Shown: positions 16,210 to 36,388, numbered from the stretch's first letter. The stretch is DNA of 40,470 nt from Bacilli bacterium (GCA_017477845.1 JAFUTR010000033.1:1-40470); one strand, 5' to 3'. Numbers and translations: made by a program. Notes: generated from the sequence alone by a model not told the origin.

Positions 16210-17802
16210 CTATCTAGCGTAGCTTGTAAGTTCAGCAAATGTAAAGAATAACTTTACGTTTTTTTCATTATCGACTTCCACCTTATTTACTAAAGACATT
16301 ATCAATTCTCTAGAAGGATTCTCTGTTGATAAATATTTTTTTATATATTCAGCGCATTTTCCATAATCTAAATTTTTGATTTTTGTTATCAACTCAGTTT
16401 TTTTAGATTTTAAATATTCTTTATCCTTTTCTGCATTTTTTAAACTATCATTATATGTTTTTAATAAACAATCATATACATTAATCGGTATTTTTTCTTG
16501 CATTTTATCTAAATATAAATTTTCAATTGCTCTATTATATTTAGTTATTTCTTTTGATAGTGAATCAATATCTTTTTGAATTTTTTCAGTTTGTTCATTA
16601 AGTATCAAAGTTGCTTCTTCTTTCAATGATTTATCACTATATTCTTTTAAAAATGAACTACAAATATCATTTATTGTTGTTAATAAGTCTTCCTCTAATA
16701 ATTTATAATCTAAAAGATGATTATTGCATAAACCATATCTCCCTTTTTTAACAAACAAATTACACTGAGTGTATATTGAGTTATTACCCTTATTATGTCT
16801 TTCACGTATACTTAATTTATGTCCACATTCTTTACAATACAATAATCCTCCAAATAAAAATCTATTTGGTTCTTTATTTAAAGGTTGTTTAGATAATGAC
16901 TTTAATATTTTTTGAACTTTATCAAATACATCTCTTTCAATAATAGGCTCATGTGTATTTTCAACCTTTATATATTCATCTTTATCAAGTTTTCTAATTT
17001 TTTTTGAATTGTACCTAACCTTTTCAAACATGTTTTGAACCATAGTTCCTAAATACATTTCACTTGTTAAAATATCTTTGATTGTTTGCTTTCTCCAAAT
17101 ACCAAATCCATCATTTTCAGTTACTAGCGCACCTCTTGATTCTTTTTTATATACAATAGGTATAGGCACTTTTTCATCACTCAATTGTCTAGCTATTTTA
17201 CAACATCCATTTCCATTAAGTGCCATATTATATATCCTTTTAACTACTAACGATGCAACTGGATCTGGAATTAAGTGATGATGATCATTAGGATCCTTCA
17301 AATATCCATACTTTGGTATTGAACCAATATATTGTCCATTTTGTTTTCTTGCTGTTAGTGAACTTTTAACTTTTCTTGATGTATCTCTTAATGTATAGTC
17401 ATTAAAAGTTAATTTCATTGATATAAATCCATCTGTCTCTTTAGATGAATCGTATCCATCATTAATTGCAATGTATCTTACTCTTTTTTCATTAAAATAG
17501 TCTTCAATATAAGTTCCTGTTTGATATAATTCACGGCCAAGTCTTGAAAAATCCTTTGTAATTACACAATCAATTAAGCCATTTTCAATATCTCTAATCA
17601 TTTCTCTAAATGCAGGTCTATCAAAGTTACTACCCGAATATCCATCATCAACATAATCCTTAACTATTTCTATTTTATTAAACTTACAAAATGACGTATT
17701 TATCATTCTCTGTCCTTCTATAGACATACTCTCGTCACTTTTTAATTTATTAAAATCTTCTTTTGATAGTCTTTCGTATATAGCAGCTTTATTGTTTTTC
17801 AA
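16210..17802 (-). CDS. Large serine recombinase (site-specific integrase)
   Basis: 530 residues with the large serine recombinase plan. The resolvase-type catalytic domain starts AAIYERLSKED (nucleophile Ser13), followed by VDDGYSGSNFDRPAFREMI and VITKDFSRLGRE with the catalytic arginines. The recombinase domain (about 160-280) has IPKYGYLKDP and GIWRKQTIKDIL. A zinc ribbon CKECGHKL...CNLF...CNNH lies near 325-365 and a long coiled coil follows to about 480. It integrates and excises the element, and sits 75 bases from the junction with the ftsW/rodA remnant as expected. The start is TTG at 17802, with AGGAGGAG upstream. No early stop or frameshift is seen, so it may be active. Confidence 0.95.
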   Translation of the reverse strand: MKNNKAAIYERLSKEDFNKLKSDESMSIEGQRMINTSFCKFNKIEIVKDYVDDGYSGSNFDRPAFREMIRDIENGLIDCVITKDFSRLGRELYQTGTYIEDYFNEKRVRYIAINDGYDSSKETDGFISMKLTFNDYTLRDTSRKVKSSLTARKQNGQYIGSIPKYGYLKDPNDHHHLIPDPVASLVVKRIYNMALNGNGCCKIARQLSDEKVPIPIVYKKESRGALVTENDGFGIWRKQTIKDILTSEMYLGTMVQNMFEKVRYNSKKIRKLDKDEYIKVENTHEPIIERDVFDKVQKILKSLSKQPLNKEPNRFLFGGLLYCKECGHKLSIRERHNKGNNSIYTQCNLFVKKGRYGLCNNHLLDYKLLEEDLLTTINDICSSFLKEYSDKSLKEEATLILNEQTEKIQKDIDSLSKEITKYNRAIENLYLDKMQEKIPINVYDCLLKTYNDSLKNAEKDKEYLKSKKTELITKIKNLDYGKCAEYIKKYLSTENPSRELIMSLVNKVEVDNEKNVKLFFTFAELTSYAR

Positions 17803-18629: not shown

Positions 18630-19091
18630 CTATTTTTTTAATTTTTTTGAAATTTTATTAATTGCAGAATCTATACTAAATTTAACAGCCATTTTAGTAC
18701 ATTTTTCTTCTTTTGCAATTTCATCTAGAGTCATATCATAAAAATAGTATTTTATTATTCTTCTTTTTTGAACAATAGTTAAATTGTTTAATTCTTTTTT
18801 TAACTCTTTTATTTTTAATGCGTTAATTACTTCATCCTCCAAAGAGTAATCACTAGCAATAACCTCTGAATTAAAGTTTTCGTGTAACAAGTGCTTTGAA
18901 TATTCGTAAAATCTAGCATTTTCAAATTTTTCATTTTCATCAAACAAATTAAATACTTCTCTACTTACTTCAACTTTTTGCATTACCCCTTTATTATCAT
19001 AAAAGTTAATAATGTATATATTCTTATCCTTAATGCTATTTAATATATAAGGATTATCTCTAAATCTTCTTCGTATGGGACGCTTGTCCAT
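18630..19091 (-). CDS. Sigma-70 region 4-like transcription factor of the element
   Basis: 153 residues. The last 55 (about 98-150) match sigma region 4: LTIVQKRRIIKYYFYDMTLD, EIAKEEKCTKMAVKFSIDSAINKI, a helix-turn-helix that would contact a -35 box. The N-terminal half is charged, with NIYIINFYDNKGVMQKVEVSREVFNLFDEN, and lacks a recognisable region 2, so it may be a regulator rather than a full sigma factor. Such proteins are typical of Firmicute ICEs, beside the integration genes. The ATG has GAAAGGAG upstream, but this site is enclosed in a 10-bp hairpin. A strong terminator follows. Confidence 0.8.
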   Translation of the reverse strand: MDKRPIRRRFRDNPYILNSIKDKNIYIINFYDNKGVMQKVEVSREVFNLFDENEKFENARFYEYSKHLLHENFNSEVIASDYSLEDEVINALKIKELKKELNNLTIVQKRRIIKYYFYDMTLDEIAKEEKCTKMAVKFSIDSAINKISKKLKK

Positions 19092-19164: not shown

Positions 19165-19198
19165 GCACAAAAAAACTATGCTTTTTCAAGCATAGTTC
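19165..19198 (-). terminator. Intrinsic terminator of the second secreted-protein cassette
   Basis: Minus-strand AACTATGCTT pairs with AAGCATAGTT around GAAA and is followed by TTTTTTG. It ends transcripts coming from the cassette at 19.4-20.9 kb and from the promoter near 19,350. Confidence 0.85.
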
Positions 19199-19281
19199 AT
19201 CCAATAAATGATTAAATCTTGTTTTTTTATCGTAGTTTTTAACCACAATATTGTTAAATAAATCCACACAATATATAACAT
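19186..19281 (-). CDS. Candidate 31-residue membrane peptide
   Basis: The 19,092-19,388 gap holds, besides regulatory sites, a short minus-strand frame from the ATG at 19281 to a TGA that falls inside the terminator stem. It encodes MLYIVWIYLTILWLKTTIKK then QDLIIYWMNYA: a hydrophobic helix followed by a basic stretch. A GGGGATGG six bases upstream is a mediocre ribosome-binding site. A promoter with paired 17-base repeats (19,350-19,386) points into it, and the transcript would be about 150 bases. It could equally be a non-coding RNA. A second overlapping frame starting MVVYVIYCVDLF runs through the terminator and is less likely. Confidence 0.35.
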   Translation of the reverse strand: MLYIVWIYLTILWLKTTIKKQDLIIYWMNYA

Positions 19282-19349
19282 ATACAACCATCCCCAAAAG
19301 AAAGTTTTTTCTTTTGTTGGCTATAATAAAACATATATATGTTGTTTTT

Positions 19350-19386
19350 AGTATCTTTTTTGGCGAATAAGTATCTTATTTTTCTA
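19350..19386 (-). promoter_or_regulatory. Paired 17-base direct repeats, set 1
   Basis: On the minus strand TAGAAAAATAAGATACT (19,370-19,386) is followed exactly 20 bases later by a copy ending CCAAAAAAGATACT (19,350-19,366). About 20 bases downstream is TATTATAG, a possible -10. The same unit and spacing occur upstream of the secreted-protein gene at 20.1 kb, so this is probably a binding site for a dimeric regulator on one DNA face. Confidence 0.55.
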
Positions 19387-19388
19387 TT

Positions 19389-20132
19389 TTACCATGAACC
19401 TGTCCAAGTCGCTACTGCTTCAGCAATTGAATCGTAGTAACTAGAGACACTTGTATCTAACACTATTCCACCAGATTGTATAACAGAATATTTTTTTGAA
19501 TTTGCTAGTGAAATACTACTCGTTGCATGTGCATAATCTGAATATGCTTTTTGAGTAATAATAGTACTTGATGTATTTTTTTCTACATCAAAGTAAAAAG
19601 TTTGTTTTAATGTATTTAGATCCCCAGTTGGTAATTTAAAACTCGTTCCAGCTCCAGATACAAATATTTGAGGATAATTTGTACTTGTTGTATAACAACT
19701 TCCACCATTATAGCAATAATACTGTTCAAAATATGTTGTATTATTATGAACCTTTACAGATTGTAAAAAACCTATACCAATTATGTCATAACTTCTAACT
19801 GCTGGCATATTTTTCCATGATAAAACATTTTTATATCGATAATAACTTCCGTTAGTTAAAATATAAGAGGTCATTCTTTTGTAAGTAGTCTCACTTACTG
19901 TTGGATTACTTTTTGTATTATTTACATCTGCTTCATTATATTCTTTTTCAGTTATTTCAACAGTAACTGAATTGTTTAAAGCTGACAATTTTTGAGAATC
20001 ATATTTGCTATATGTAATTGTTTTATAGTATTTTGTCTCTTCTGAAATTAATACAAAATCATCTTGTGCATTAACTTTAAATGGAATTATAGATAAAACC
20101 GAAACAAGTATCAATAAAAAAAATTTTCTCAT
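19389..20132 (-). CDS. Secreted protein, family shared with the gene at 27.5 kb
   Basis: 247 residues with a Sec signal peptide (basic MRK, hydrophobic core to residue 18, cleavage likely after VNA at 22). The mature part is rich in Ser, Thr, Tyr and Asn and looks all-beta, with a CYNGGSC pair. Its C-terminal 140 residues align with the protein at 27495-28241: VRSYDIIGIGF against IRSYDVIGARF, GAGTSFKLPTGD against GFGTSVKLPTGA, a following YF/YT strand, and YAHATSSISLANSKKYSV against YQHATSNISLPDSYYYTI. No cell-wall anchor or catalytic motif is seen; the function is unknown. GAAAGGAGGAATAGT before the ATG is almost the same as at the paralogue. It follows a membrane-anchored HTH gene, as does the paralogue. 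Confidence 0.8.
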   Translation of the reverse strand: MRKFFLLILVSVLSIIPFKVNAQDDFVLISEETKYYKTITYSKYDSQKLSALNNSVTVEITEKEYNEADVNNTKSNPTVSETTYKRMTSYILTNGSYYRYKNVLSWKNMPAVRSYDIIGIGFLQSVKVHNNTTYFEQYYCYNGGSCYTTSTNYPQIFVSGAGTSFKLPTGDLNTLKQTFYFDVEKNTSSTIITQKAYSDYAHATSSISLANSKKYSVIQSGGIVLDTSVSSYYDSIAEAVATWTGSW

Positions 20133-20179
20133 ACTATTCCTCCTTTCAATAATATAATAATGTATTTTATTGAAATAAA

Positions 20180-20216
20180 AGTATCTAATTTTTCTACATA
20201 GTAGCCAATTTTTCTA
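20180..20216 (-). promoter_or_regulatory. Paired 17-base direct repeats, set 2
   Basis: On the minus strand TAGAAAAATTGGCTACT (20,200-20,216) and TAGAAAAATTAGATACT (20,180-20,196) start 20 bases apart, just upstream of the secreted-protein gene at 20132. Candidate -10 sequences TACATT and TATTAT lie downstream. The unit matches set 1 at 19,350-19,386, indicating co-regulation. Confidence 0.6.
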
Positions 20217-20218
20217 TT

Positions 20219-20950
20219 TTAATTTAAAAAATACTTTTTTTGAATTCGTTCTTCATTCACATAGTAACTTATTACAAGTGAAATATTATCTGTATCTAAT
20301 TTATGCTCACTTTCACAAGCAAATGAATAGTTGGAAAAAGATTCATAAAGAGTAACATCATCAGGATAATTGTTTTCATTAGAACAGATTAACTCATCAT
20401 TGGAATAAAAATCAACATTAATTTTGTTGGTTTTTATTTCATTTTCTGTTCCTGCATTAGTATCGTCAAATATAATTTTATTAATTACTATCTTCGCTTC
20501 AGAATTATTTTGAAAAAAATAACCTGAAATATGAAAAATGTCATCAACACTAAATTTATTAATAGACCATCTATAATGATGATCAACTAAGAAAATTGTT
20601 GTAAAAGTAAATACAAGCAACGAAAATATCAACACAACTATCCTTATTGATTTTTTCTTTGTTTGTTCAGAATATATTTTTACTGCTGTAATTGTAGCTG
20701 ATTCTTTATTATCATAATTATTTTCAAATGATTCACCATTTATAATTTCCTCAACACTAACATTAAATAATTTAGACATACTTTTAATAATATCAATGTC
20801 AGGAGCAACAATACCACGTTCCCATTTTGAAACTGTTTTCTCCCCAACAAATAATTTTTCCGACAATGTTTTTTGAGTATAGCCATTTTCTTTTCTTAGT
20901 TTTGCAATGTATTCACCAATTCTAACAAGAGTTGTTTTATTTGTACTCAT
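20219..20950 (-). CDS. Membrane-anchored XRE-family regulator
   Basis: 243 residues: an XRE helix-turn-helix at about 9-64 (IGEYIAKLRKENGYTQKTLS, WERGIVAPDIDIIKSMSKLF), a linker, one membrane helix at about 99-121, and an extracellular domain of about 120 residues that looks like a beta sandwich (IVINKIIFDDTNAGTENEIK). This plan lets an outside signal alter DNA binding. The gene precedes a secreted-protein gene by 86 bases, exactly as the homologous regulator at 28.3-29.4 kb precedes the paralogous secreted protein. TATAAT at about 40 bases upstream of the ATG and a palindrome at 20,997-21,013 form its control region. Target and ligand are not known. Confidence 0.82.
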   Translation of the reverse strand: MSTNKTTLVRIGEYIAKLRKENGYTQKTLSEKLFVGEKTVSKWERGIVAPDIDIIKSMSKLFNVSVEEIINGESFENNYDNKESATITAVKIYSEQTKKKSIRIVVLIFSLLVFTFTTIFLVDHHYRWSINKFSVDDIFHISGYFFQNNSEAKIVINKIIFDDTNAGTENEIKTNKINVDFYSNDELICSNENNYPDDVTLYESFSNYSFACESEHKLDTDNISLVISYYVNEERIQKKYFLN

Positions 20951-20996
20951 ATCATCACACCTCTTACATAATTATAGTCTAAAAAAAGAAATTTTA

Positions 20997-21013
20997 GTTT
21001 ACAATTTGTAAAC
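20997..21013. promoter_or_regulatory. Perfect 17-base palindrome between divergent regulators
   Basis: GTTTACAATTTGTAAAC has eight-base arms around one base and lies between the divergent genes at 20950 (minus) and 21094 (plus), upstream of the TATAAT of the minus gene. It is the best candidate operator for one of the two XRE-type regulators. Confidence 0.65.
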
Positions 21014-21093
21014 ATTATTAATTATTTTTTCGTATTTCCCAGACTTTTGAATAATAAAACAACTTGGATGGAATAATAATTTTGGTGAGAGAT

Positions 21094-21528
21094 ATGTATT
21101 TACCAAAATTAAAAGAATTTTTTGAAGAATACAATTTAAAGCAAAAAGATGTAGCAACTAAATTGGGAATATCTCCAAAAACAATTTCAGGCTGGGCTAA
21201 TTATCATGATATTATCCCACTAGAAAAATTAGTGAAGCTATCAAACGAATATAAAATTAGTATTGATTATTTAATTGGAAAAACAAGAAATAATAATTAT
21301 AAAAAATTATGTACTGATAAGGTAATTATTGGTAAAAGATTAGCTAAGGTAAGAAAAGATAATGACAAAACAATTGAATATATAAGTAAGAAAATAAATA
21401 TATCTAATGGTGCTTATTGTGATTATGAAAATGGAAGAAATCTAATTAAAACAATTTATTTGTTAAGTCTAATAGACACATATCATAATTTATCAATTGA
21501 TGAATTATTAAAAGAAAAAAATAGTTGA
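21094..21528 (+). CDS. Tandem helix-turn-helix (XRE) regulator
   Basis: 144 residues from the ATG at 21094, with GGTGAGAG upstream; the longer frame begins at a TTG without a ribosome-binding site. It is one of very few genes on the plus strand. Two XRE domains are visible: residues 5-62 (FEEYNLKQKDVATKLGISPK, TISGWANYHDIIPLEKLVKL, SIDYLIGK) and residues 76-139 (IGKRLAKVRKDNDKTIEYIS, ISNGAYCDYENGRNLIKTIY, SIDELLKE). No sensor or membrane part. Placed between the two parts of the secreted-protein cluster, it may control them or the element; the nearby palindrome is a likely site. Confidence 0.85.
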   Translation: MYLPKLKEFFEEYNLKQKDVATKLGISPKTISGWANYHDIIPLEKLVKLSNEYKISIDYLIGKTRNNNYKKLCTDKVIIGKRLAKVRKDNDKTIEYISKKINISNGAYCDYENGRNLIKTIYLLSLIDTYHNLSIDELLKEKNS

Positions 21529-21546
21529 AATCAACTATTTTTTTTA
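21514..21546. terminator. Bidirectional terminator between convergent genes
   Basis: AAATAGTTG pairs with CAACTATTT around AAAT, with T tracts on both strands. The stop of the plus-strand regulator is inside the stem and the stop of the minus-strand gene at 21544 abuts it, so it serves both. Confidence 0.85.
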
Positions 21547-21831
21547 TCCTTTAATTATTGTTTCTTCATTTATTTTGATTCCAAGTAAATAAAAAGTATA
21601 CTTATTTACTCCATAATTTTTGTCCTCTGGATTGAAATTACCCTCAATATCAAATGAATATCCGAGACACACATAATGACCCGAACCATTATCCTTTTTC
21701 AATTCTGTACCAATACACATTATTGGCTTATTCCTATTATTTAACCTACAAAGATTTATTATTAAAAATAAACACCAAAGAAATGCTAATATTCCAATTA
21801 AGATTAATATATTTTTTTTCTTTTTAATCAT
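21544..21831 (-). CDS. Small membrane-anchored exported protein
   Basis: 95 residues with a membrane helix at 8-28 after a KKKK start, then a small extracytoplasmic domain with two cysteines (CIGTELKKDNGSGHYVCLGY) and SFDIEGNFNPEDKNYGVNKY, TFYLLGIKI. I recall similar small exported proteins in gut Firmicutes but know no function. TAGGAGGTCAA precedes the ATG. Its promoter shares a 24-base element (21 identities) and -10 spacing with the promoter of the secreted-protein gene at 27.4 kb, which ties it to the cluster. It might be an immunity or accessory protein (inference from co-regulation only). Confidence 0.68.
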   Translation of the reverse strand: MIKKKKNILILIGILAFLWCLFLIINLCRLNNRNKPIMCIGTELKKDNGSGHYVCLGYSFDIEGNFNPEDKNYGVNKYTFYLLGIKINEETIIKG

Positions 21832-21848
21832 TTGACCTCCTAATTACA

Positions 21849-21888
21849 TATATACCATCATTCAAATCATAAATCGTTCGCATTTTAT
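21849..21888 (-). promoter_or_regulatory. Shared promoter element, copy 1
   Basis: On the minus strand ATAAAATGCGAACGATTTAT followed by GATT (21,865-21,888) is ten bases upstream of TATATA (21,849-21,854). The upstream copy at 27,434-27,473 has the same layout with 21 of 24 bases identical. The hexamer at the -35 position is ACGATT, far from TTGACA, so an activator or special sigma factor is likely needed. Confidence 0.65.
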
Positions 21889-21989
21889 TATTCGAAATGT
21901 TATCTAGTTTTAAACCAAAAAGTATAGTTCTAATCATAAAATAATTCAATTATGTTTTTCTTTTCAACTAAATTTTAATATGGCAAATT

Positions 21990-22054
21990 TTAAAAATAAA
22001 GAGCGAATGTTTCACATAAAATAAAACTTTAAAATATGAAACATTTGCTCTTTT
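21990..22054 (-). terminator. Long-stem terminator after the second ABC transporter
   Basis: Minus-strand AAAAGAGCAAATGTTTCATA pairs, with few mismatches, with ATGTGAAACATTCGCTCTTT, then ATTTTTAAAA. It lies about 110 bases after the transporter stop. Its stem resembles the hairpin at 28,281-28,345. The rest of the 333-base gap 21,832-22,164 shows only the promoter element described and AT-rich sequence. Confidence 0.75.
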
Positions 22055-22164
22055 AATAAATATATGTATATATATCGAAATTATATTTTATAACAAAATA
22101 ATATATACAAACCATTTTTTTACCATTTTTGTATGTTATGTAAATTGAATTAGTTTCTCTATCT

Positions 22165-23997
22165 TCAATTAATTAAATCAATAATATTCATCTTTAAGTA
22201 TCTTCTTAATGGAATATAGACTACAATTGCACTATATGATATTAATATGACTAACACAAAAACTAATAAATATATTGGTATCATAATATCGATGCTTAAA
22301 ATAATATTTAAAATAATAGAAATAAATAAATATGTAATAATAGATAGAAATAACATTTTAAATATGTTTAGTAAATACTCACTAATTATAATAATTGATA
22401 TTTCCAACTTACTAATGTTAAAAATTTGTAAGAAGCCTATTTCTTTTTTTCTATAATATAGCTTTAAACTTAATCCATTACTAATGAAAATTATAGCAAT
22501 TACACCAAAAACAAGAAATGACAAAATACTTATATTTGCTACAAATTCTGCATCTTTTGAAATCATCAATATTCTATTTTCCCATGTATTATAAACGCTA
22601 TCTTTGGGACCATTTGAGGAATTAAATATACTTCCATTATAGATATCAACTAAATATTGTTCTTTAATTTTAACTATTATCTTATCAGTATTGTAATCAG
22701 GTTTTTTTTCACCAATAGATTTCATTAAATCATAAGGAATAAAAATTGATGGTAATGATTCGCCTCTTCCACTCTTATTTATATTTCTGTAAAAATAATT
22801 AGACGCATATAACTCAATATAATTTTCATCTGTAAGTTTAACAATTCCACTGATAACCAGTTCATTATTTTTTAATATTACTTTTTTACCAATGATTTTT
22901 GAATAATCAACATTTTCAAATTTAATTTTCGCAAACTCTTCATTGACTAGAATTTCATTATCACTTTTTGGAAATGAACCATAAGCAATTATTCCTGGTA
23001 AGTTCAAATTGCTGTCTTCTCTGTGCAACAGGTTATATGCTGTATAGTCCTTTTCATAAATATTATATTCATAATATTTATATTCGATCAAGTCATCAAC
23101 ATAATCTGACTCACTTAATGTCAAATCAATGATATCGTAGTTTTTTTGTTTTGCAATAAGTTTGATATACTCATTTTTAAAATTTATTTTTAAAGAGAGC
23201 GAAAAGAATAGTATTAAAAATAGTATTATCATAAAAACGTTTACAATTATATTTTTCTTTTTATTCTTTTTTAAAATAAATTTAAAGTCATTTATAATAC
23301 TTCTGCTATCATGTTCTTTTAAACTTCTTGATTTACTTCTACCTTTGTAATTATTTAAAAAACATTTTGAATCGTTTTTGACTATATTAACTTTTCCATA
23401 TTCAATTTCAATTTTAAAATCACATAATTCAGAATAAATATCTTTGTGAGTTGCAATTATTATTATTTTGTCTGATATATCTATTTTTTTCAAATAATTA
23501 ACAAAATTAATAGAATTATTATAATCCAAAGCTGATGTAGGTTCATCTGCAATAATAATTTCATTATCATTTAGTAAAGCTCTTATTAATGATATACGCT
23601 GTCTTTCCCCACCAGACAATTGATAAGGGAATTTGTCTAGTAAATCATATACATCAAATTTTTTTGATAATGATATTATTTTCTCTTCATTATTTTCTAT
23701 AAACTTCAAATTTTCAATTATACTAACATTTTTGAATAATAAACTTTTTTGAGTAACATAACCTATTTTTTTTCTATATAATTCGAGGAAGTCACTATTA
23801 TTTTTTACAGAAATAGATTCGTAAAACAACTCCCCATCAAAGTTAATATCCAGTCCTGAAATTATATTTAACAATGTTGTTTTTCCACTACCACTAACAC
23901 CTTTAATTACATATATATTTCCTTTATCAAAGGATAAATTAATATTATCTAGAATTTTTTTATCGTATGTCTTACTTATATTAACTAAGCTAATCAT
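22165..23997 (-). CDS. MacB-like ABC transporter (ATPase-permease fusion), second of pair
   Basis: 610 residues. The ATPase is N-terminal: Walker A GVSGSGKTT at 33-41, signature LSGGERQR at 127-134, Walker B IIIADEP at about 148-153, H-loop His184. The permease follows: a helix near 248-270, an extracytoplasmic domain of about 210 residues, then three helices near 488-510, 525-560 and 565-600. This four-helix plan with a large outer domain is that of MacB/FtsX-type transporters, which act on outer-surface substrates rather than by channel transport. The ATG overlaps the stop of the partner gene (ATGA), so the two are made together and probably form a heterodimer. Likely clients are the secreted proteins upstream or a harmful peptide (inference). 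Confidence 0.88.
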   Translation of the reverse strand: MISLVNISKTYDKKILDNINLSFDKGNIYVIKGVSGSGKTTLLNIISGLDINFDGELFYESISVKNNSDFLELYRKKIGYVTQKSLLFKNVSIIENLKFIENNEEKIISLSKKFDVYDLLDKFPYQLSGGERQRISLIRALLNDNEIIIADEPTSALDYNNSINFVNYLKKIDISDKIIIIATHKDIYSELCDFKIEIEYGKVNIVKNDSKCFLNNYKGRSKSRSLKEHDSRSIINDFKFILKKNKKKNIIVNVFMIILFLILFFSLSLKINFKNEYIKLIAKQKNYDIIDLTLSESDYVDDLIEYKYYEYNIYEKDYTAYNLLHREDSNLNLPGIIAYGSFPKSDNEILVNEEFAKIKFENVDYSKIIGKKVILKNNELVISGIVKLTDENYIELYASNYFYRNINKSGRGESLPSIFIPYDLMKSIGEKKPDYNTDKIIVKIKEQYLVDIYNGSIFNSSNGPKDSVYNTWENRILMISKDAEFVANISILSFLVFGVIAIIFISNGLSLKLYYRKKEIGFLQIFNISKLEISIIIISEYLLNIFKMLFLSIITYLFISIILNIILSIDIMIPIYLLVFVLVILISYSAIVVYIPLRRYLKMNIIDLIN

Positions 23998-25964
23998 AAT
24001 AAATCGTCTCCTTCTTTAACTGTTAGTAACCATCCTTTCTTTTTTTGCTTAAGTAGCATAATTGAAGTATAAACTATGGTTACAAACAATAATGAAAAAA
24101 ACAAGTATAAGATCATGTAATTGTCTATTTGAAAAACTTTAAAATTATAAATATGATTTTCAAAAATTACCATATTTAAAATTGGAACAAGTATTACTGA
24201 AAGTGTAACAGATATAAGATATTTATATATTACTGATAATACAGATATAAAGGAATTTGTAATTAAGATTTTAATCCAACTATATCCATAATAATAATAT
24301 ACTGATAATATATGCCCTGTATATTCATCTTGAATGGTTTTAGTTTGAAAATAAAAAACTATAGCGCTTATAAATGCAATTATTATTATTGGATATGATA
24401 ATAATTTTAACATTTCTATATCCTGCTGATAATTGATGAAATTCAGTGAAAAGTCATAAATCTTAATTGGAGAATTATTATTACTATCTTGAAAATCATT
24501 ATAAAAATTAATTAAATTTGATGAATTATCAAAATAAACATAAAGAGACGTAGCTTTGTAATTATTTAATTCCCCATATCCTAATACATCATCATATAAA
24601 TATTTTTCTAGGTATTTACTATTTATATAAGTATACATGTTATAATCTAATTCCCCAAACATACTTTTCATGTAAATATTATCATCTGATATATACTTAA
24701 AAATCCCAGAAACTGTAAATTCCTCCTCCTTATCAGGTAATTTGATTTTAATTTTTGTACCTATTAATTTCTGAATATTTGAATCTATTTGTTTTGCTTG
24801 CTTATATCCTAAAATTATGTCATTTTGAGTTGTAAAATAATTTCCATACAACATTAAATTTTCCGAAATATTGAATAAGTCTTGTTCATATGGAAGTGTA
24901 AGTAATGTTCCGTCAAAATCAATTATTGGACTACCATCATCATTTGTTTTTATAGGAATGTTTTCAGAATAATTATATACAATTGACTTATAATCATATT
25001 TTTCTAATATATCTTTGCAATAATTTTGACTTTCAATCGAACAATATAGTTTAACAACATTTACATCATACTTATTTAATAAACTCTCAAGCAGTTTTTC
25101 TTTATAACTGCTACACGCAAATGATAATAAAAGAATAATAATCAAAAACAATATTAAAAAATAGTCAGATTTTTTTTCACGTTTTTTATAAAAGATTTTT
25201 TTTATCATAAACAAAAATAAATTATTCTTTTTATTATGTTCATTTATTTTACTATTTTCAAAATTCAATTTATAATCATTTTCATATTTGTTATTTTTTT
25301 TCTTTTCAATTAATGCTGATATTTTCTCTATATTAATTACTTCATCAATAGATTCAATTAAGCTATCATCATGTGAAGCACAAATAATTAAATGATCCTT
25401 TTTTATTTTCTTAATAATGCTAAATAATATTTGTTTATTTCTTTTATCTAACGAAGCAGTAGGTTCGTCTAAAAGTATGACTTTTTGATTTTTTAATAAT
25501 GCTTGGATTATTGATACACGTTGTTTTTCACCACCAGACAATTGATAGGGGTATTTATGCAAAACTTCAGTTAGTTGAAATTCATTTAAATATTCGTAAA
25601 TTTTTTTATAATCATTTTTATCAGTCAAACATAATTTAAGATTATCTTCTATTGTCAAGTAATCAACAAAATACAAATTTTGAGTAATATAAGCAATTGA
25701 CTCTCTACTTATTTTTTCTGAAACTTGATTATTAAAAGTATAATTAAAAAAATAAATTATTCCATTTTCAAAGTTTATAGCACCACTTATAATATTCAGT
25801 AAAGTTGTTTTTCCACTACCACTAACACCAGAAATAAAATAGGCTTTGTTTTCCTCAAAATCATAGGAAAAGTTATCAATTATTCTTTTATTATCAAATG
25901 ATTTACAAACATTTCTACATCTAATAATTACTTTTTTTCTATCACTGTTCATCATAACCATCAT
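23994..25964 (-). CDS. MacB-like ABC transporter (ATPase-permease fusion), first of pair
   Basis: About 656 residues with the same plan as its downstream neighbour. The ATPase has GVSGSGKTT near 46-54, LSGGEKQRVSIIQALL, VILLDEPTASLDKRN and an H-loop CASHDD. After a helix near 270-285 (YFLILFLIIILLLSFACSS) comes an outer domain of about 230 residues and three C-terminal helices ending in ILYLFFSLLFVTIVYTSIML. Several near-start ATGs occur (25964, 25961, 25955, 25952) overlapping the end of the previous gene; no ribosome-binding site stands out, so coupled translation is likely and the exact start is open. It may pair with the 610-residue protein. The single-pass protein upstream occupies the place of the membrane-fusion subunit in YknXYZ-type systems but does not resemble it. 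Confidence 0.87.
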   Translation of the reverse strand: MMVMMNSDRKKVIIRCRNVCKSFDNKRIIDNFSYDFEENKAYFISGVSGSGKTTLLNIISGAINFENGIIYFFNYTFNNQVSEKISRESIAYITQNLYFVDYLTIEDNLKLCLTDKNDYKKIYEYLNEFQLTEVLHKYPYQLSGGEKQRVSIIQALLKNQKVILLDEPTASLDKRNKQILFSIIKKIKKDHLIICASHDDSLIESIDEVINIEKISALIEKKKNNKYENDYKLNFENSKINEHNKKNNLFLFMIKKIFYKKREKKSDYFLILFLIIILLLSFACSSYKEKLLESLLNKYDVNVVKLYCSIESQNYCKDILEKYDYKSIVYNYSENIPIKTNDDGSPIIDFDGTLLTLPYEQDLFNISENLMLYGNYFTTQNDIILGYKQAKQIDSNIQKLIGTKIKIKLPDKEEEFTVSGIFKYISDDNIYMKSMFGELDYNMYTYINSKYLEKYLYDDVLGYGELNNYKATSLYVYFDNSSNLINFYNDFQDSNNNSPIKIYDFSLNFINYQQDIEMLKLLSYPIIIIAFISAIVFYFQTKTIQDEYTGHILSVYYYYGYSWIKILITNSFISVLSVIYKYLISVTLSVILVPILNMVIFENHIYNFKVFQIDNYMILYLFFSLLFVTIVYTSIMLLKQKKKGWLLTVKEGDDLL

Positions 25965-26850
25965 CAAAAGTACTAATTATTTTATATAAACGCATTATTT
26001 TTTCATTTTTATAATCAGGGAACTCTTCTAATATATCAATTTTTTGATTTTTAATAATATATTTTTCTATTTCTTTTACTTGATTATACAATTTTATTTG
26101 CTCTTGATTAGCCTTATTGTTATGTATTAAATCAGACAAAAAAGTGTTGTCAGAATATACTATATCTATTCTTAATGCTATAATATTCCCACGGAAAGCA
26201 AGAATGCCAACATTCCAAAAATATCCATCTTTTAATTCATCTTTTTTTATAGAGCAAGGATCCATAAGATATGGCCCAACTTTTTTTGTAAATTTTTTTG
26301 ATACAGCATTATTGTAAAGATTTATAATAGTATTTTTGTCAAAATTATACACATCTATATCCTTCATATCTTCAAAATCAATTTTTTTATTGAATTGTTT
26401 TTCATCAAACCAATTTTCTATTTTAGTAATTTCATCATTTGCTCTTATGCCATTTGATTCTTTTTTTGAAATTGATAAAGTTGGAAATCCATCTATTTCA
26501 CGAACAACTTCTGTATAAGTATCATCTTTATATACTCTCAATTTGTAATTATCTAATTTTTCATACTTTAAATTACAGCCATTAAAAAAGTTTGATGTTA
26601 TATCTTGTTTTTGTTCAATTGTCGTAATCAAAAAATAATAAAACCATCCATCTTCTCCTGATATTTCAGTTGAGATTTCTTCTGCATACATTTTAGTAGC
26701 ATAATTTTTAGCGGCATTTTCGGATTCTTTCATCTTTTTATTATAATAACTATCACTTGATTTTGAATCAATAAAAAGAAAAATGCCCGAAATAACAAAT
26801 ATAATAATGATAATGCCAAAAATCACCCTAGCTTGCAATTTTATATTCAT
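25942..26850 (-). CDS. Single-pass membrane protein of the transporter operon, unknown
   Basis: 302 residues from the ATG at 26850 (AAAGGAGTAAGT upstream; the longer frame has no site). One membrane helix at about 8-30 is followed by an extracytoplasmic region of 270 residues. A helical stretch KMKESENAAKNYATKMYAEE comes first, then a mixed domain with GEDGWFYYFLITT, two single cysteines (FFNGCNLKY and YLMDPCSIK) and a charged C-terminal helical part. No family recognised. It overlaps the first ABC gene and follows the 167-residue secreted protein, so it is probably a structural partner or substrate receptor of the transporter. Confidence 0.72.
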   Translation of the reverse strand: MNIKLQARVIFGIIIIIFVISGIFLFIDSKSSDSYYNKKMKESENAAKNYATKMYAEEISTEISGEDGWFYYFLITTIEQKQDITSNFFNGCNLKYEKLDNYKLRVYKDDTYTEVVREIDGFPTLSISKKESNGIRANDEITKIENWFDEKQFNKKIDFEDMKDIDVYNFDKNTIINLYNNAVSKKFTKKVGPYLMDPCSIKKDELKDGYFWNVGILAFRGNIIALRIDIVYSDNTFLSDLIHNNKANQEQIKLYNQVKEIEKYIIKNQKIDILEEFPDYKNEKIMRLYKIISTFDDGYDEQ

Positions 26851-26911
26851 ACTTACTCCTTTCTTTCTAAATAATAACATAAAAAAGCTAAATTAATAGA
26901 TTTTTTACATA

Positions 26912-27415
26912 TTAATCTACTGCAAATTGATAATAGAACAATTCTCCATTAGTTGCACTTGTATCACCGCTTACAGCATCTAATGAGACCTTAATATATA
27001 ATTCAGCAGTTGGATCACCAGCAGAATCAATATTTCCACTTGTATTAGTAGTTATGCTTTCTACTGCATTTTTCATTTGTAATCCATCAAATCCAAATCT
27101 ATATGTTTTTACTAAATCATCAGCATTTGGATAGACATCATCTTCATACATTCTAATATACACTTTACGACTATTATTAGGAACACAAACAGTACTTCTT
27201 AACCAACCAAATGTTGTTATATAAAAATATGTTCTATCACCTCTAACAGATGTATATGTAGGAGTAGTTATAGATGTAGTGCCAGATTGCACTGTTGCAC
27301 CGGAATATACTTCAGGTCCTTTTAAGTTTGCTGAATATGTAAGTGCTGAAACACCTGCCACACCAACTATCATTATTGATAATGCAAATATTGATAGCAT
27401 TATTTTTTTTATCAT
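26912..27415 (-). CDS. Secreted 167-residue protein, unknown
   Basis: A Sec signal peptide (MIKK, hydrophobic core, cleavage likely after VSA at 24) is followed by a Thr/Ser/Tyr-rich mature domain of about 140 residues with alternating polar and hydrophobic residues, probably all-beta. A single cysteine (STVCVPNNS) is present, and no anchor or catalytic motif. It is not evidently related to the 248-residue paralogues. AAGAAAGGAGAAAAT precedes the ATG. It has its own promoter carrying the element shared with the gene at 21.5 kb, and lies directly upstream of the single-pass protein and the ABC pair, so it is the prime candidate for a product exported, displayed or sensed by that system. Confidence 0.72.
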   Translation of the reverse strand: MIKKIMLSIFALSIMIVGVAGVSALTYSANLKGPEVYSGATVQSGTTSITTPTYTSVRGDRTYFYITTFGWLRSTVCVPNNSRKVYIRMYEDDVYPNADDLVKTYRFGFDGLQMKNAVESITTNTSGNIDSAGDPTAELYIKVSLDAVSGDTSATNGELFYYQFAVD

Positions 27416-27433
27416 ATTTTCTCCTTTCTTTTA

Positions 27434-27473
27434 TCTATAACAAACATACAATTATAAACCGTACGCATTTTAT
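27434..27473 (-). promoter_or_regulatory. Shared promoter element, copy 2
   Basis: On the minus strand ATAAAATGCGTACGGTTTAT followed by AATT (27,450-27,473) is ten bases upstream of TATAGA (27,434-27,439). It differs from copy 1 (21,865-21,888) at only three of 24 positions and keeps the same distance to the -10, in front of an unrelated gene. It includes the CGTACG palindrome. Confidence 0.65.
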
Positions 27474-27494
27474 AATTAATGTTGTTAACTTATT

Positions 27495-28241
27495 TTAAAT
27501 ATTAACACCACCCATACCATCATATATACCTGAAGCATTTCCATAAAAGTTAAATACTCCACCTAATCCTCCAGGACTAATAGTATAATAATAACTATCT
27601 GGTAGTGAAATATTGGATGTCGCATGTTGATAACTTGCATATATATTTCCACCAATATTAGTATAAAACTTTTGATTAACTATGATATTAGTTGCACCAG
27701 TTGGAAGTTTTACAGAGGTACCAAAACCATTTGATAAATATCTATTGTTTGAAAAGTAAGTAGTTCCACTACTTGATGATACTTTAGTAGTAATATTATT
27801 AGTATATAAACTTGTACCATTAAATCTTGCACCTATGACATCATAACTTCTAATAGTAGGATTTGTTAACCAAGTCAGATTAGTTATAACAGTACATTTG
27901 GTTGTATCACATGATCTTGCAATACTTATCTTCTTACTATTGGTTTCATAAGATGGTCCTTTTGTTAATATGTTATTTAATGATAAATTAGATACATCAT
28001 GATATGCATTTATTTCTACTTGCCTATTATTTATATCTAAATCAGCAATCCACTCATAATCTTCTTGTGTCATATTCATAAAATAATTTTCTCCATAAAA
28101 ATCATTAATGAATTTATATTCTTTATCAGTTAGTTCAACACCATTACTATTTATGAATGTTTTATTAACAGTTGCATATACCTTGCTAGAAATCGATATA
28201 ATTAAAATAAGAAATACAAATAACAAAAATTTTTTTTTCAT
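27495..28241 (-). CDS. Secreted protein, family shared with the gene at 19.4 kb
   Basis: 248 residues with a signal peptide (MKKK, hydrophobic core, cleavage likely after VYA at 23). The mature N-terminal part begins with a polar segment (VELTDKEYKFINDFYGENYF, then NMTQEDYEWI) absent from the paralogue, followed by the shared C-terminal domain: IRSYDVIGARF, GFGTSVKLPTGA, YASYQHATSNISL, then a Gly-rich end YTISPGGLGGVFNFYGNASG. A CDTTKC pair could form a disulphide. GAAAGGAGGAATAAT precedes the ATG. The gene follows the membrane-anchored HTH gene, separated by a long hairpin, and no separate promoter is visible, so expression may depend on read-through. Function unknown. Confidence 0.8.
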   Translation of the reverse strand: MKKKFLLFVFLILIISISSKVYATVNKTFINSNGVELTDKEYKFINDFYGENYFMNMTQEDYEWIADLDINNRQVEINAYHDVSNLSLNNILTKGPSYETNSKKISIARSCDTTKCTVITNLTWLTNPTIRSYDVIGARFNGTSLYTNNITTKVSSSSGTTYFSNNRYLSNGFGTSVKLPTGATNIIVNQKFYTNIGGNIYASYQHATSNISLPDSYYYTISPGGLGGVFNFYGNASGIYDGMGGVNI

Positions 28242-28280
28242 ATTATTCCTCCTTTCAAATTTAATTCTAATCCTTGATGT

Positions 28281-28345
28281 AAAAAAAAATAAAGGGCAAG
28301 TATTTCACATTGCAATATTCTAAAGAATGTGAAATATTTGCTCTT
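28281..28345 (-). terminator. Long-stem terminator or attenuator inside the cassette
   Basis: Minus-strand AAAGAGCAAATATTTCACAT pairs, with few mismatches, with ATGTGAAATACTTGCCCTTT, followed by ATTTTTTTTT. It begins within the stop codon region of the HTH gene and precedes the secreted-protein gene. Its stem is related in sequence to the terminator at 21,990-22,054. Confidence 0.78.
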
Positions 28346-29440
28346 TTAATCATTAATATAGTTTAAATATTTTTCTTTTATTTCTGTAACGAAATCTACA
28401 TTGCAATTACCATTTTTACAAGAATTTAAATTTATGCTATATATGTAATTATCAACAATTGTTGAATTCTCAAATTTATTATATTCTAATGTATTGTCAT
28501 TTAAGTCATAAAAAATTTTTTCTTCATAATTTGATTTTTTAATTGTAATAATATATATATTTGTATTGGCGAAATACTCTTCCAGTATATTATTATTTTC
28601 TCTTTCATATGAATCCTTTTCTTCGTCATAATAAAAGTTTGTAGTTACATATTTAGGTACTTTATTTATATTAGATACTTTATCATTATCTGAAATAGGT
28701 TGTTTTAAATCTTCAATTATTTTATTGTTAGAATAATCTTTAGATAAAATCAAATCAATTATAACATTTTCCTCATTGTCTAGTTTTAACTCTAGTTTCA
28801 AGTTTTTTATAATATAATCAAGATCACTATAATTAAATAATTCATTATAATTAAAGTTATTGATAAATAATAGTTTTGTATCAGAATCATTTCCTATAAA
28901 TATATCTTTTTCTTCATTATCTCTTATAAAAAACAACCTAACACTATTTATATTATTACTACTGTTATTTTCAATATCTCCAACCCTAATATAACTTTTT
29001 TCTTTTGAAAATAATAATATACCATTTGACACATAAAAATTACCATTTTCACCATACACTTTATATACATGTATAGAATTATAATTATTTATAAAATAAT
29101 ATATAAAGAAAGAAAAAATTAAACATATAACTATAAGTGAACTAACAATTATTAGTTTTTTAAATCGTTTCTTTTCGTCTTTAATTATTTTAATAGGTAT
29201 CGAATCAACATTATTATTGTTATCATTATTTTTTCTTTCACCATAGATAATTTCATTTATTGTTACATTAAATAATTTTTGCATTTCTAATAATATTTCT
29301 GTATTTGGTATGTATATACCACGTTCCCATTTCGATACCATAGTCCTATCAACCAATAATTTCTCAGCTAAATCTTCTTGTGTCCATTTTTTCTCTTTTC
29401 TGAGTTCACAAATGAATTGACCAATTTTTTTATTATTCAT
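28346..29440 (-). CDS. Membrane-anchored XRE-family regulator with large outer domain
   Basis: 364 residues from the ATG at 29440 (AAGGAG nine bases upstream). XRE helix-turn-helix at about 5-60 (IGQFICELRKEKKWTQEDLA, MVSKWERGIYIPNTEILLEM), close in sequence to the regulator at 20219-20950. One membrane helix at about 93-117 is followed by an extracellular region of about 245 residues, roughly twice that of its relative, with a beta-rich first half (VYGENGNFYVSNGILLFSKE) and a second half ending in CKNGNC. It heads the operon of secreted protein, single-pass protein and ABC pair. A TATAAT about 25 bases before the ATG is its likely -10, and the palindrome GTATCTTTTTTAGATAC lies further upstream at 29,522-29,539. 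Confidence 0.83.
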   Translation of the reverse strand: MNNKKIGQFICELRKEKKWTQEDLAEKLLVDRTMVSKWERGIYIPNTEILLEMQKLFNVTINEIIYGERKNNDNNNNVDSIPIKIIKDEKKRFKKLIIVSSLIVICLIFSFFIYYFINNYNSIHVYKVYGENGNFYVSNGILLFSKEKSYIRVGDIENNSSNNINSVRLFFIRDNEEKDIFIGNDSDTKLLFINNFNYNELFNYSDLDYIIKNLKLELKLDNEENVIIDLILSKDYSNNKIIEDLKQPISDNDKVSNINKVPKYVTTNFYYDEEKDSYERENNNILEEYFANTNIYIITIKKSNYEEKIFYDLNDNTLEYNKFENSTIVDNYIYSINLNSCKNGNCNVDFVTEIKEKYLNYIND

Positions 29441-31347: not shown

Positions 31348-32252
31348 CTATTTTTCATTAAGCTTTGTACTCATCAATTTATATAATTTAGTATCTTTTG
31401 GAAATTCATTTTTAAATGGTATTAATGAGCTTCCTATTTTTAATAATCCCTCTCCGACTTCAACATTTGTAATATATCCCATTTGAGTATCTGATATTGA
31501 TAATAACTTGGATAATTCTTTTGAATCTGTTCCTGCTTGGTTTAACATAACTAAAAATTCTGAATTTGCTAACATTGTTCTTGCTGTATGACTTTGTAAT
31601 AAATCATCAACATTTTGAGTAATTCCAGTACAGAATGCTCCATATTTTCTTACTCTTTTCCACAATGTGAATAAGAAGTTTGCTGAATATTCATGTTGAA
31701 ACAATAAATATATTTCATCAATAAAAATATAAGTGTTTTTCCCTTTTTGTCTATTAACAGTAATTCTATTTAATATGGCATCAAGTACAACTAACATACC
31801 AAAAGTTTTTAAATCTTTATCAAGTTCTAGAATATCATAACAAACTATTCGATTATTTATATCAACATTAGTATTTTTAGAAAATGTATTTAGTGTTCCA
31901 TCAGTATATAATTCCATGGCAACTGCTATATCATTTGCTTCTTTTTCTGGTTGCTTTGCAAGTTCTTCTTTAAAATCATGTAGAGTTGGTGCAACTCCCA
32001 TATAATTTCCTTGCTGATATGCTCTATATACTTTTGATGTACATCTATCTATTATAGATTTTTCTTTTGCTCCTAAACCATTTACTCCTATTAAGTTTTC
32101 ACATAATGATAAGATAAACTCTGACTTTAATATAACTGGATTTCCTTCATCACTATAATCTGCATTTATATCCATTGGATTAATATGGTTATCACTTGTT
32201 GCTGCAAGTCTTACTACTTGTCCACCTAGATTTTCTACTAACTTATAATATT
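31348..32252 (-). CDS. virB4: VirB4-family conjugation ATPase, exon 2
   Basis: This is the C-terminal part of the VirB4/TrsE-type ATPase that energises the type IV secretion channel. It resumes at AATATTATAAG (Tyr-Tyr-Lys) after the intron and reads KLVENLGGQVVRLAATSDNH, INPMDINADYSDEGNPVILK, the Walker B NTYIFIDEIYLLF, and the ITQNVDDLLQS motif. The open frame has an apparent ATG at 32175 but that is an internal methionine; no ribosome-binding site precedes it. Joined with exon 1 it gives 781 codons in frame. Without splicing the protein would lack Walker B and be inactive. Confidence 0.92.
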
Positions 32253-32301
32253 ATAACGATAGGTAAGTTTTTGATATTATCTCCAACTTTTCCCCCGTTC
32301 C

Positions 32302-32335
32302 ACACCGTACGTGAGACTTTCACCTCATACGGCGT
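32302..32335 (-). ncRNA. Group II intron domain V
   Basis: A 34-base hairpin with GCCGTA and TACGGT arms, a GTATGAGG/CTCACGTAC internal bulge and a GAAA-type loop, the most conserved catalytic part of group II introns. The triad position reads CGC. It lies about 50 bases before the 3' splice site, leaving room for domain VI. Confidence 0.9.
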
Positions 32336-32363
32336 TCCATCATTTCCAATTAGTTATTATAAG

Positions 32364-34355: not shown

Positions 34356-34944
34356 AAATCTAAGTTATATATTAACTAATATCATTAATACTTTCCTTAG
34401 AACCGCTTCTTTGAATGTAAGTTCTCTGCGTTATTAGTTTCCCAAGTACCAAAATTGTTATCTATACATATTTACCCTTAGACCATTCCTATGAGCCTGT
34501 TATCTTACTAGTGCCTATAACACTATATGGGCTTTCATAAACGAGACTTTTACTAACCCACAATAACAACACAATTATGTGTTATATACCTTTCGATATA
34601 TTCCCCGTTTAGACCCGTACATTCGGAATTTTGTCAGTATTAATTTTATTCGTGAAATTTCTTTATACATTCTAGTCATAGGTAATTTTTAGACCTCCGG
34701 CATATAGACTACATATCCTACCTCTAGGACACTTTCCTTAATTATATTTCTACAATTATTAGGGTAATTTTCTGCCGACTTTATCGAGCTTAATACACTT
34801 CATTACTTACATAATTTAGTGCATTTCGAAGTCTTAAGGATAGCCTTTCGAGACGTTACTCTCTCATTCGACTATTCACAATTTTAGTTCTACTAAATAG
34901 TTGTCAACCTATTTAATGGGCATATCTTTTCAATATGCAACTTG
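34356..34944 (-). ncRNA. 5' ribozyme part of the group II intron (domains I-III)
   Basis: About 590 bases without an open frame of interest, between the 5' splice site and the reverse transcriptase gene. Its base composition is markedly less AT-rich than the flanking genes, with many short complementary segments, as expected of structured domain I. The stop that ends the unspliced VirB4 frame lies at 34913, inside this part. Confidence 0.75.
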
Positions 34945-34950
34945 TCGCAC

Positions 34951-36388
34951 CTCTTTCTGGATCAATTATAATTATGTCGGCATCTTTGTCTCTTAATGCT
35001 ATTGATACAATCTCATTTTTTGCAGTAAATGATTTACCACTTCCAGATACACCTAATATAAATGAATTTCCATTTAATAGTTTTCTTCTATCTGCTATTA
35101 TCATATTTTTTGATATAACATTTTGTCCATAATATATCCCATTTTCTTCTTGAATTTCTTGTACTCTAAATGGCATAAATACTGCAATTGATTCTGTAGT
35201 TAAAGATCTATTTTGGTCAATTATTAAGTTTCCTATTGGTAAAGATATATTTAGTCCTAAAAGTTGTTGATATTTCATTTTTGCTAACTGACATAAATAT
35301 TTTCTTGATACTGTTAATAAGCTTTCTGTGTCTTCATCTAATTTTTCTTTTGAGTCAGAAATTATTACTATTGTTAATACTGATAAAAACATTCTTTGAT
35401 CTCTTGCTGTCATGTCATTTAAGAAGTCAATCGAGTCTTCTCTCTCTTGCCCCATATCATAAGGAATTATTGCACTAAAATTATTATTGTTATTTTGTCT
35501 TCTTTGCCAGTTAGTTATATTTGTTTCAACTCCTAATCTAACTTTTTCTCCAAGTCTAATTGCTACATCTTTTGGAATTGGTAACACATCAATTGATAAT
35601 ATTAAATTTCTATTTAAGTCTGTTAGTTCTGAAACCATATCATCTCTTATAAAGTTAGCATAATCTTTCAAGAAAAAAACTCTTCCAAATTTATCTCCCA
35701 TTTCAAAATAGTCATCTTTAAAACTAAAAGTATCAGGACAAATATAATCTTTAAAACTATGTCCTTTTCTTAATAAATCTCGACTATCCCAAGTAAAAAT
35801 ATTTTCTTCACCAATTCTATAAAAATCATGAATAAGTCTCATTCTATCTTCTGTATTTAATTCAATACATTTAGAACCTATTTGATTAAATTTCGTATTT
35901 AAATCAATACTTATCCTTCTAAAATATGTCCTTGCTTCTTCTATATTCTTTTTTATAACTGTTACTGTTAAATATTTTTCCTGAATTATAGAATTATTAC
36001 CAATAGATTTACTCATTAACATTTTATTATATTCATCACGATATTCATCTAAAATATCTCCAACTTTTGGAATCATTACATTCTTTTCAAAATCTATTTT
36101 ATTTAATTTTCTATTAAGTATTGTTATTTTTGTAGTTGCTCCTGTATCAAATGAATTTAAAAGTTCAGAATATTTTAAAAATAATTTTGTTTTATCATCA
36201 TCAGATGCAACTGCATAATTTATATCTGTAAATCTAAAACATTTACTATATTTATTATTTGAAAGAAGAAATATTCCATCTTCATATATTGCTTTAATAG
36301 GAATACAATCTTGAACACTTTTTGGAATAACAAATTTTTCTTTATCTTTTTTTAATATTTTTTTTATGTTTATCATTTTTCTTTTCAT
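34951..36388 (-). CDS. virB4: VirB4-family conjugation ATPase, exon 1
   Basis: 479 codons and one base of the VirB4-like ATPase gene. Visible are the N-terminal substrate domain (VPKSVQDCIPIKAIYEDGIF), the Walker A GVSGSGKSF near residue 456, and IIIIDPER at the end. In the unspliced message twelve intron-encoded residues follow and translation stops at 34913. The family is that of CD1110/TcpF-type proteins of clostridial ICEs. It overlaps the PrgI gene by 47 bases. Intron insertion between Walker A and Walker B makes transfer depend on splicing. Confidence 0.93.

What the first reader, a model, noticed from the sequence alone, without database searches (positions are those of the whole stretch)
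19174..29440. Candidate undescribed surface/antagonism system: duplicated membrane-HTH plus secreted-protein cassettes with a MacB-like transporter pair
Seen: two cassettes have the same order, a membrane-anchored XRE regulator followed by a secreted protein of one family (20.95 to 19.39 kb and 29.44 to 27.50 kb). Between them are a second secreted protein, a single-pass protein, two overlapping MacB-like ABC genes and a small exported protein. Known: MacB-type pairs act on substrates at the outer face and often serve peptide export or resistance. Inference: the regulators sense a state outside the cell and control secreted proteins that are handled by the transporter; this could be a bacteriocin/immunity, signalling or surface-display system carried by an ICE. 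The pairing, preserved after duplication, argues for a functional link.
Basis: partly seen in the sequence, partly recalled or inferred. Interest (0 to 1): 0.8.

Follow-up and report, generated by a model that had tools for sequence, protein, structure and literature searches.

The report
Membrane sensor pairs controlling bacteriocin-type transporter cassettes
A mobile element from an uncultured gut bacterium carries an undescribed two-gene switch, a membrane-anchored DNA-binding protein plus a secreted immunoglobulin-fold protein, that recurs in front of interchangeable bacteriocin-type transporter cassettes and probably tells the cell when to make or resist small secreted proteins.

Summary
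The genes are real and placed as described. Survey of relatives shows three separable modules. (1) R-S: membrane-anchored XRE regulator plus secreted protein; 78 of 88 S genes in a named-genome scan sit directly behind an R gene, and R and S co-diverge even within genomes. S has no Pfam family; its confident model has a pilin/MSCRAMM-like Ig domain. R1-S1 and R2-S2 are old, separate lineages, not a recent duplication. (2) E167-SP312: small exported protein plus single-pass protein. (3) ABC1-ABC2: MacB-like pair. Homologous R-S pairs stand before different cassettes, including a true lactococcin-972-type operon and lantibiotic-protection-like and LolD/BceAB-like transporters. In another genome R sits directly before SP312-ABC1-ABC2 without S; SP312's outer domain is fused to membrane-XRE regulators in three loci. 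Best reading: a co-component-like envelope sensor driving swappable bacteriocin-type production/protection cassettes, here on an ICE. New variant of known kinds; R-S-ligand contact and the toxicity of E167 are untested.

The parts
28346..29440 (-). R2: XRE HTH (res 14-66), TM (~91-113), ~250-residue two-part beta-rich ectodomain; membrane-tethered regulator
   Evidence: AF2 pLDDT 92.6
28242..28345 (-). R2-S2 gap: terminator-like hairpin with T9 tract and a -10-like TAGAAT 22 nt before S2
   Evidence: (z -3.0)
27495..28241 (-). S2: secreted protein, small helical N-terminal part plus C-terminal Ig-like (pilin/MSCRAMM-type) beta-sandwich
   Evidence: (pLDDT 91.2)
26912..27415 (-). E167: small Sec-exported protein, no known family; next to SP312 homologues in all six loci found
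25942..26880 (-). SP312: single-pass protein with ~250-residue ectodomain; homologues are single-pass or lipoprotein-like; ectodomain also fused to XRE-TM regulators (L080, L193, L194)
23994..25967 (-). ABC1: NBD-FtsX-like MacB-topology half transporter, catalytic motifs intact by eye
22165..23997 (-). ABC2: second NBD-FtsX-like half transporter, overlaps ABC1 by 4 nt
20219..20950 (-). R1: short-ectodomain membrane XRE regulator
19389..20132 (-). S1: secreted protein of the S family, subfamily without the helical N-terminal domain
19173..19198 (-). terminator-like stem-loop after S1
16210..17802 (-). serine recombinase of the mobile element; R1-S1-type pairs lie at the recombinase end in this window, L063, L172 and L173

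Best explanation
The locus is a mobile, modular surface-response system. R2 is a membrane-tethered one-component regulator whose outer domain is read out together with its partner S2, a secreted Ig-fold protein encoded just behind it (a co-component-like sensor). R2 controls the transcript that starts at S2 and runs through E167, SP312, ABC1 and ABC2. E167 is a small exported protein, most likely bacteriocin-like; SP312 is its membrane-anchored receptor/protection protein; ABC1-ABC2 is a MacB-type heterodimer that works on E167-like substrates at the outer membrane face (self-protection or release). R1-S1 is a second, independent pair linked to the recombinase end of the element. Shown: the genes, domain architectures, R-S linkage and co-divergence, cassette swapping, R-SP-ABC linkage without S, SP-XRE fusions. 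Inferred: R-S contact, direction of regulation, toxicity of E167, substrate of the transporter.
For: R directly upstream of S in 78/88 cases, median gap 82 nt; R-S tree distances correlate 0.81, above all 999 global permutations (max 0.32) and all 2000 within-genome partner swaps (max 0.8097 vs 0.8099). Confident models: XRE-TM-ectodomain and Ig-like secreted partner. In G003, behind the same ICE peptidase gene (92% identical over its end), R2/S2 homologues (55%, 64%) precede a different cassette: secreted 131-aa protein, three 6-TM proteins, lantibiotic-protection-like ATPase. First gene after R-S is a small secreted protein in 25/75 loci versus 10% background, p=1e-7; in 12 of 16 loci with an ABC. 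L076/L077: above-cutoff TIGR03608 ATPases (273, 267 bits) behind R-S. L152: R-SP-ABC1-ABC2 with no S or E. SP ectodomain fused to XRE-TM in three loci. ECF sigma plus a TM protein in the anti-sigma position replaces R before S (L179, L183) and before E-SP (L071). R-S gap carries a terminator-like hairpin in 61/88 (shuffles 31/264) and a -10-like motif 15-34 nt before S.
Against: Most R-S pairs (59/75) have no ABC of this kind within five genes and many lie next to housekeeping genes such as spoIVA or secreted protease-like genes, so bacteriocin control is not the general role of R-S. E167 has no match to any bacteriocin family. No operator motif was found. The ABC enrichment after R-S is modest (6.4% vs 3.0% of genes, p=0.01).
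Confidence: 0.45

Rival explanations
1. Envelope-stress detoxification: R(-S) senses foreign cell-wall-active peptides and SP312-ABC1-ABC2 removes them (functional analogue of BceRS-BceAB); E167 is an accessory scavenger or sensor, not a toxin.
For: R without S is followed by LolD/BceAB-like ABC genes (10/23 loci); SP-ABC1-ABC2 occurs without E167 in L059, L060, L152; MacB-type transporters in Gram-positives commonly protect against peptides (PMC5985334).
Against: E167 homologues always adjoin SP homologues, also without any ABC (L057, L071, L195), fitting a dedicated exoprotein/partner pair.
Confidence: 0.3
2. Surface-display/adhesion island: S proteins are pilin/MSCRAMM-like adhesins, R controls their contact-dependent expression, and neighbouring exported proteins are unrelated surface cargo.
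For: S fold resembles pilin and MSCRAMM Ig domains (Z about 9); neighbours include secreted matrixin-, trypsin- and caspase-like proteins.
Against: No C-terminal sortase motif, anchor or repeats in S; Ig-like folds are common and Z near 9 is only moderately above background (note); recurrent linkage with ABC cassettes.
Confidence: 0.15
3. Unconnected ICE cargo: R-S pairs and the E-SP-ABC cassette are independent passengers that happen to be adjacent.
For: Each module occurs without the other.
Against: R directly precedes SP-ABC1-ABC2 in L152; SP-XRE fusions; secreted-protein-plus-ABC pattern behind R-S in 12 loci.
Confidence: 0.1

Closest known systems
Co-component signal transduction systems (ToxR/ToxS, VtrA/VtrC; PMC9214523)
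   Same: Membrane-tethered DNA-binding protein with outer domain, partner outer protein encoded immediately downstream, fast-evolving pairs
   Different: XRE instead of CadC-like winged HTH; partner model is Ig-like and secreted, not lipocalin-like; terminator-like hairpin between the genes; Bacilli, not enteric Gram-negatives
Lactococcin 972-type bacteriocin loci (PMC11796350)
   Same: Small Sec-exported protein followed by ABC genes; best NCBIfam hit of both NBDs is TIGR03608; an above-cutoff member stands behind R-S in L076/L077
   Different: Window ATPases are below the family cutoff and fused to permeases, no TIGR01654 protein, E167 has no Lactococcin_972 match
BceRS-BceAB and MacAB/YknXYZ modules (PMC5985334)
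   Same: MacB-type transporter plus membrane sensor plus single-pass accessory protein
   Different: No two-component system, no HlyD/MacA adaptor hit; two NBD-fused half transporters
Transmembrane transcription regulators (PMC10269533)
   Same: One-component regulator acting from the membrane
   Different: A family with a secreted partner of this kind was not found there (text search for XRE/HTH_3 gave nothing)

Membership tests
Co-component signal transduction system | HTH-TM-ectodomain protein with extracytoplasmic partner gene directly downstream | tested here: met
   78/88 pairs; models
Co-component signal transduction system | CadC/OmpR-like winged HTH | tested here: not met
   HTH_3/XRE; Foldseek top hits are XRE proteins
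Co-component signal transduction system | Lipocalin-like partner fold | tested here: inconclusive
   Model resembles Ig-like pilin/MSCRAMM domains, Z about 9
Co-component signal transduction system | Physical heterodimer of the two outer domains | not testable with these tools
   No complex prediction available
Lactococcin 972 export/immunity | ATPase above TIGR03608 cutoff (254.85) | tested here: not met
   157.3 and 176.2 bits; L076/L077 pass with 273/267
Lactococcin 972 export/immunity | Lactococcin_972 structural protein | tested here: not met
   E167 and four homologues: no Pfam family at E<=1
MacB-type (type VII) ABC transporter | N-terminal NBD fused to 4 TM with large outer domain between TM1 and TM2 | tested here: met
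   ABC_tran at N-terminus, TM at ~250 and ~480-610 in both; FtsX E 0.011 in ABC2 only, below cutoff
MacB-type (type VII) ABC transporter | MacA/HlyD adaptor (tripartite members only) | tested here: inconclusive
   SP312 has no Pfam family and no PDB homologue by sequence; its fold was not predicted
BceRS-BceAB | Two-component system next to separate ATPase and 10-TM permease | tested here: not met
   No kinase/response regulator among the genes of the finding; NBDs fused to half-size permeases

The most novel reading that the evidence does not exclude
A new superfamily of Gram-positive co-component sensors (membrane XRE plus secreted Ig-fold partner) that acts as an exchangeable control head for bacteriocin-like exoprotein/receptor/transporter cassettes, with the receptor domain of the cassette (SP312) also recruited directly into XRE regulators, i.e. 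a secreted-protein sensing and immunity network carried by ICEs.
Probability: 0.35. Interest if true: 0.78.

Novelty: new variant of a known kind. Interest (0 to 1): 0.56.

Why it matters
If right, it adds an XRE/Ig-fold type to the co-component principle, in Bacilli and outside the enteric Gram-negatives where it was described; gives a genomic handle (R-S) for finding undescribed bacteriocin-type and exoprotein loci in an uncultured gut lineage; and offers a clean case of cassette swapping under a conserved sensor on a mobile element.

Tried and rejected
Viral contigs: no relatives of S. Whole-family S alignment too divergent for a pattern scan. Solved structures by sequence: no relatives of S, E167 or SP312. 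Foldseek gave only common Ig-like folds for S with E near 1e-3 and low TM-scores and only XRE domains for R. No conserved dyad operator upstream of R. Idea that R-S is always tied to a ~490-aa recombinase was rejected: in L024, L038, L039 that protein is SpoIVA. Idea of recent duplication of the two cassettes was rejected. No lipocalin-like match for S was listed, which does not exclude one.

Full report
What was checked. The ORFs in the finding are all present on the minus strand. R1 and R2 carry an XRE (HTH_3) domain at the N-terminus and one central TM segment; S1, S2 and E167 have N-terminal signal segments only; SP312 is single-pass; ABC1 and ABC2 overlap by 4 nt and each has an N-terminal ABC ATPase followed by 4-5 TM segments with a large outer region after the first, as in MacB. 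S1 and S2 are related. Neither S, E167 nor SP312 belongs to a Pfam or NCBIfam family.

The window. It is contig 37 of a 1.56 Mb draft genome. One end is a polysaccharide cluster (LCP protein, glycosyltransferases, UDP-glucose dehydrogenase, Wzy); from the serine recombinase at 16.2-17.8 kb through TraG/VirB4-type genes it is an integrative conjugative element. The named records holding relatives are mostly uncultured Bacilli MAGs (labelled Erysipelotrichaceae, Bacillales, Tenericutes, Candidatus Caccenecus), many from animal guts. A profile of S gives strong hits only within the window's own taxonomic family; other families of the class give at most weak N-terminal matches.

R and S are one module. 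A scan of named genomes with an S profile returned 79 loci. Of 88 S genes in them, 78 have an R gene directly upstream on the same strand, median gap 82 nt; most exceptions are tandem second copies, fragments or contig ends. In a wider profile survey of 243 genomes of the family, 38 of 61 R matches were followed by S, and 38 of 79 S matches (many of them divergent) had a profile-recognised R in front; reading the unpaired loci showed further divergent membrane-XRE genes before S, and R genes leading straight into ABC genes. R and S trees agree: distance correlation 0.81, permutation maximum 0.32; swapping partners only among pairs of the same genome always lowers it (0 of 2000), so this is not only shared species history, though the margin over the best swap is small. 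R1/S1 and R2/S2 fall in different clades, each with its own relatives (L172, L173, L185, L189-L191 versus L022, L023, L075-L077); they are old paralogues, and R1-S1-type pairs sit at the recombinase end of elements in this window, L063, L172 and L173.

Structure. AlphaFold2 with 77 and 72 family members gave confident models: S2 (pLDDT 91) has a small helical part and a C-terminal beta-sandwich that resembles pilin and MSCRAMM Ig-like domains (Z about 9 over ~115 residues), a common arrangement that shows no function; R2 (pLDDT 93) has an XRE domain, a long TM helix and a two-part beta-rich outer domain for which only the XRE part found PDB matches.

Transcription. The gap between R and S carries a terminator-like hairpin in 61 of 88 pairs against 12% in shuffles; in the window it folds at z -3.0. 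A -10-like element is enriched 15-34 nt before the S start. So R is probably its own transcript and S starts a second one; in the window no terminator-like site was found between S2 and the end of ABC2, so S2-E167-SP312-ABC1-ABC2 may be one unit. This is inference from consensus scans; the R1-S1 gap does not show the hairpin.

Cassettes are swapped under the same head. The first gene after R-S is a small secreted protein in 25 of 75 loci (background 10%, p=1e-7), and in 12 of 16 loci that have an ABC of this kind within five genes. The ABC genes are of several types: above-cutoff lactococcin-972 ATPases with a weak TIGR01654 permease match in one (L076, L077), lantibiotic-protection-like (L073, L082, L140; below cutoff), LolD/BceAB-like (L085, L094, L118, L119, L151 and others), and the fused MacB pair here. 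The same ICE neighbourhood in G003 (peptidase 92% identical at its end, R2 55%, S2 64%, 153-aa gene 54%) has a different cassette at this position. Other R-S pairs stand before matrixin-like, trypsin-like or caspase-like secreted proteins (the last two by eye) or next to housekeeping genes such as spoIVA, so control of bacteriocin-type cassettes is one use, not the only one.

E167-SP312-ABC. E167 homologues were found in six loci, each with SP312 next to it; three lack the ABC pair (L057, L071, L195). SP-ABC1-ABC2 was found in six loci, three without E167 (L059, L060, L152). Most of these have no R-S, which argues against one fixed system. But in L152 an R gene (no S) directly precedes SP-ABC1-ABC2, and in three loci (L080, L193, L194; the last is a weaker match) an SP-type outer domain is fused behind an XRE domain and TM. 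S and E-SP also occur behind an ECF sigma factor with a TM protein in the anti-sigma position instead of R (L179, L183; L071). These replacements point to a shared role in signalling at the cell surface.

Reading. The best-supported explanation is a co-component-like surface sensor (R-S) that drives exchangeable secreted-protein/transporter cassettes; here E167 is the exported protein, SP312 its surface partner and ABC1-ABC2 a mechanotransmission-type transporter for protection or release. What E167 does is unknown; bacteriocin-like is favoured because true bacteriocin-type operons occupy the same slot elsewhere. A detoxification module sensing foreign peptides is the strongest rival. Known comparators: co-component systems (PMC9214523), MacB family (PMC5985334), lactococcin 972-type loci (PMC11796350).

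Noticed in passing
window 32253-34892 (-): A group II intron (RF00029 and RF02004 matches, reverse transcriptase 32364-34355) splits a VirB4/TraG-like conjugation gene into 34913-36388 and 31348-32175.
   Followed up: partly
L172:2389-6011 (G000 contig 14), L173:1893-5276: A third R-S pair in the same genome lies beside a serine recombinase next to a fragment that looks like the C-terminus of FtsW, suggesting a mobile element inserted in ftsW.
   Followed up: no
L080:6622-10173, L112:2314-3645, L122:8806-11532, L125:8860-10170: R-S pairs followed by secreted matrixin-like metalloprotease (PF00413, 1.5e-8 in L112) and caspase-like proteins with accessory secreted proteins, a recurrent protease set.
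   Followed up: partly
L179:3039-5323, L183:3100-5953, L071:1487-5189: ECF sigma factor plus a TM protein in the anti-sigma position in place of the XRE regulator upstream of S or of E-SP genes.
   Followed up: partly
window 18630-19091 (-): 153-aa protein with no Pfam family, conserved in ICE relatives (54% in L022; similar gene in L195 beside an E-SP locus); its C-terminus looks like a sigma-factor region 4.
   Followed up: no
window 21064-21528 (+): Oppositely oriented double-HTH gene between the ABC genes and R1, probably a separate cytoplasmic regulator of the element.
   Followed up: no
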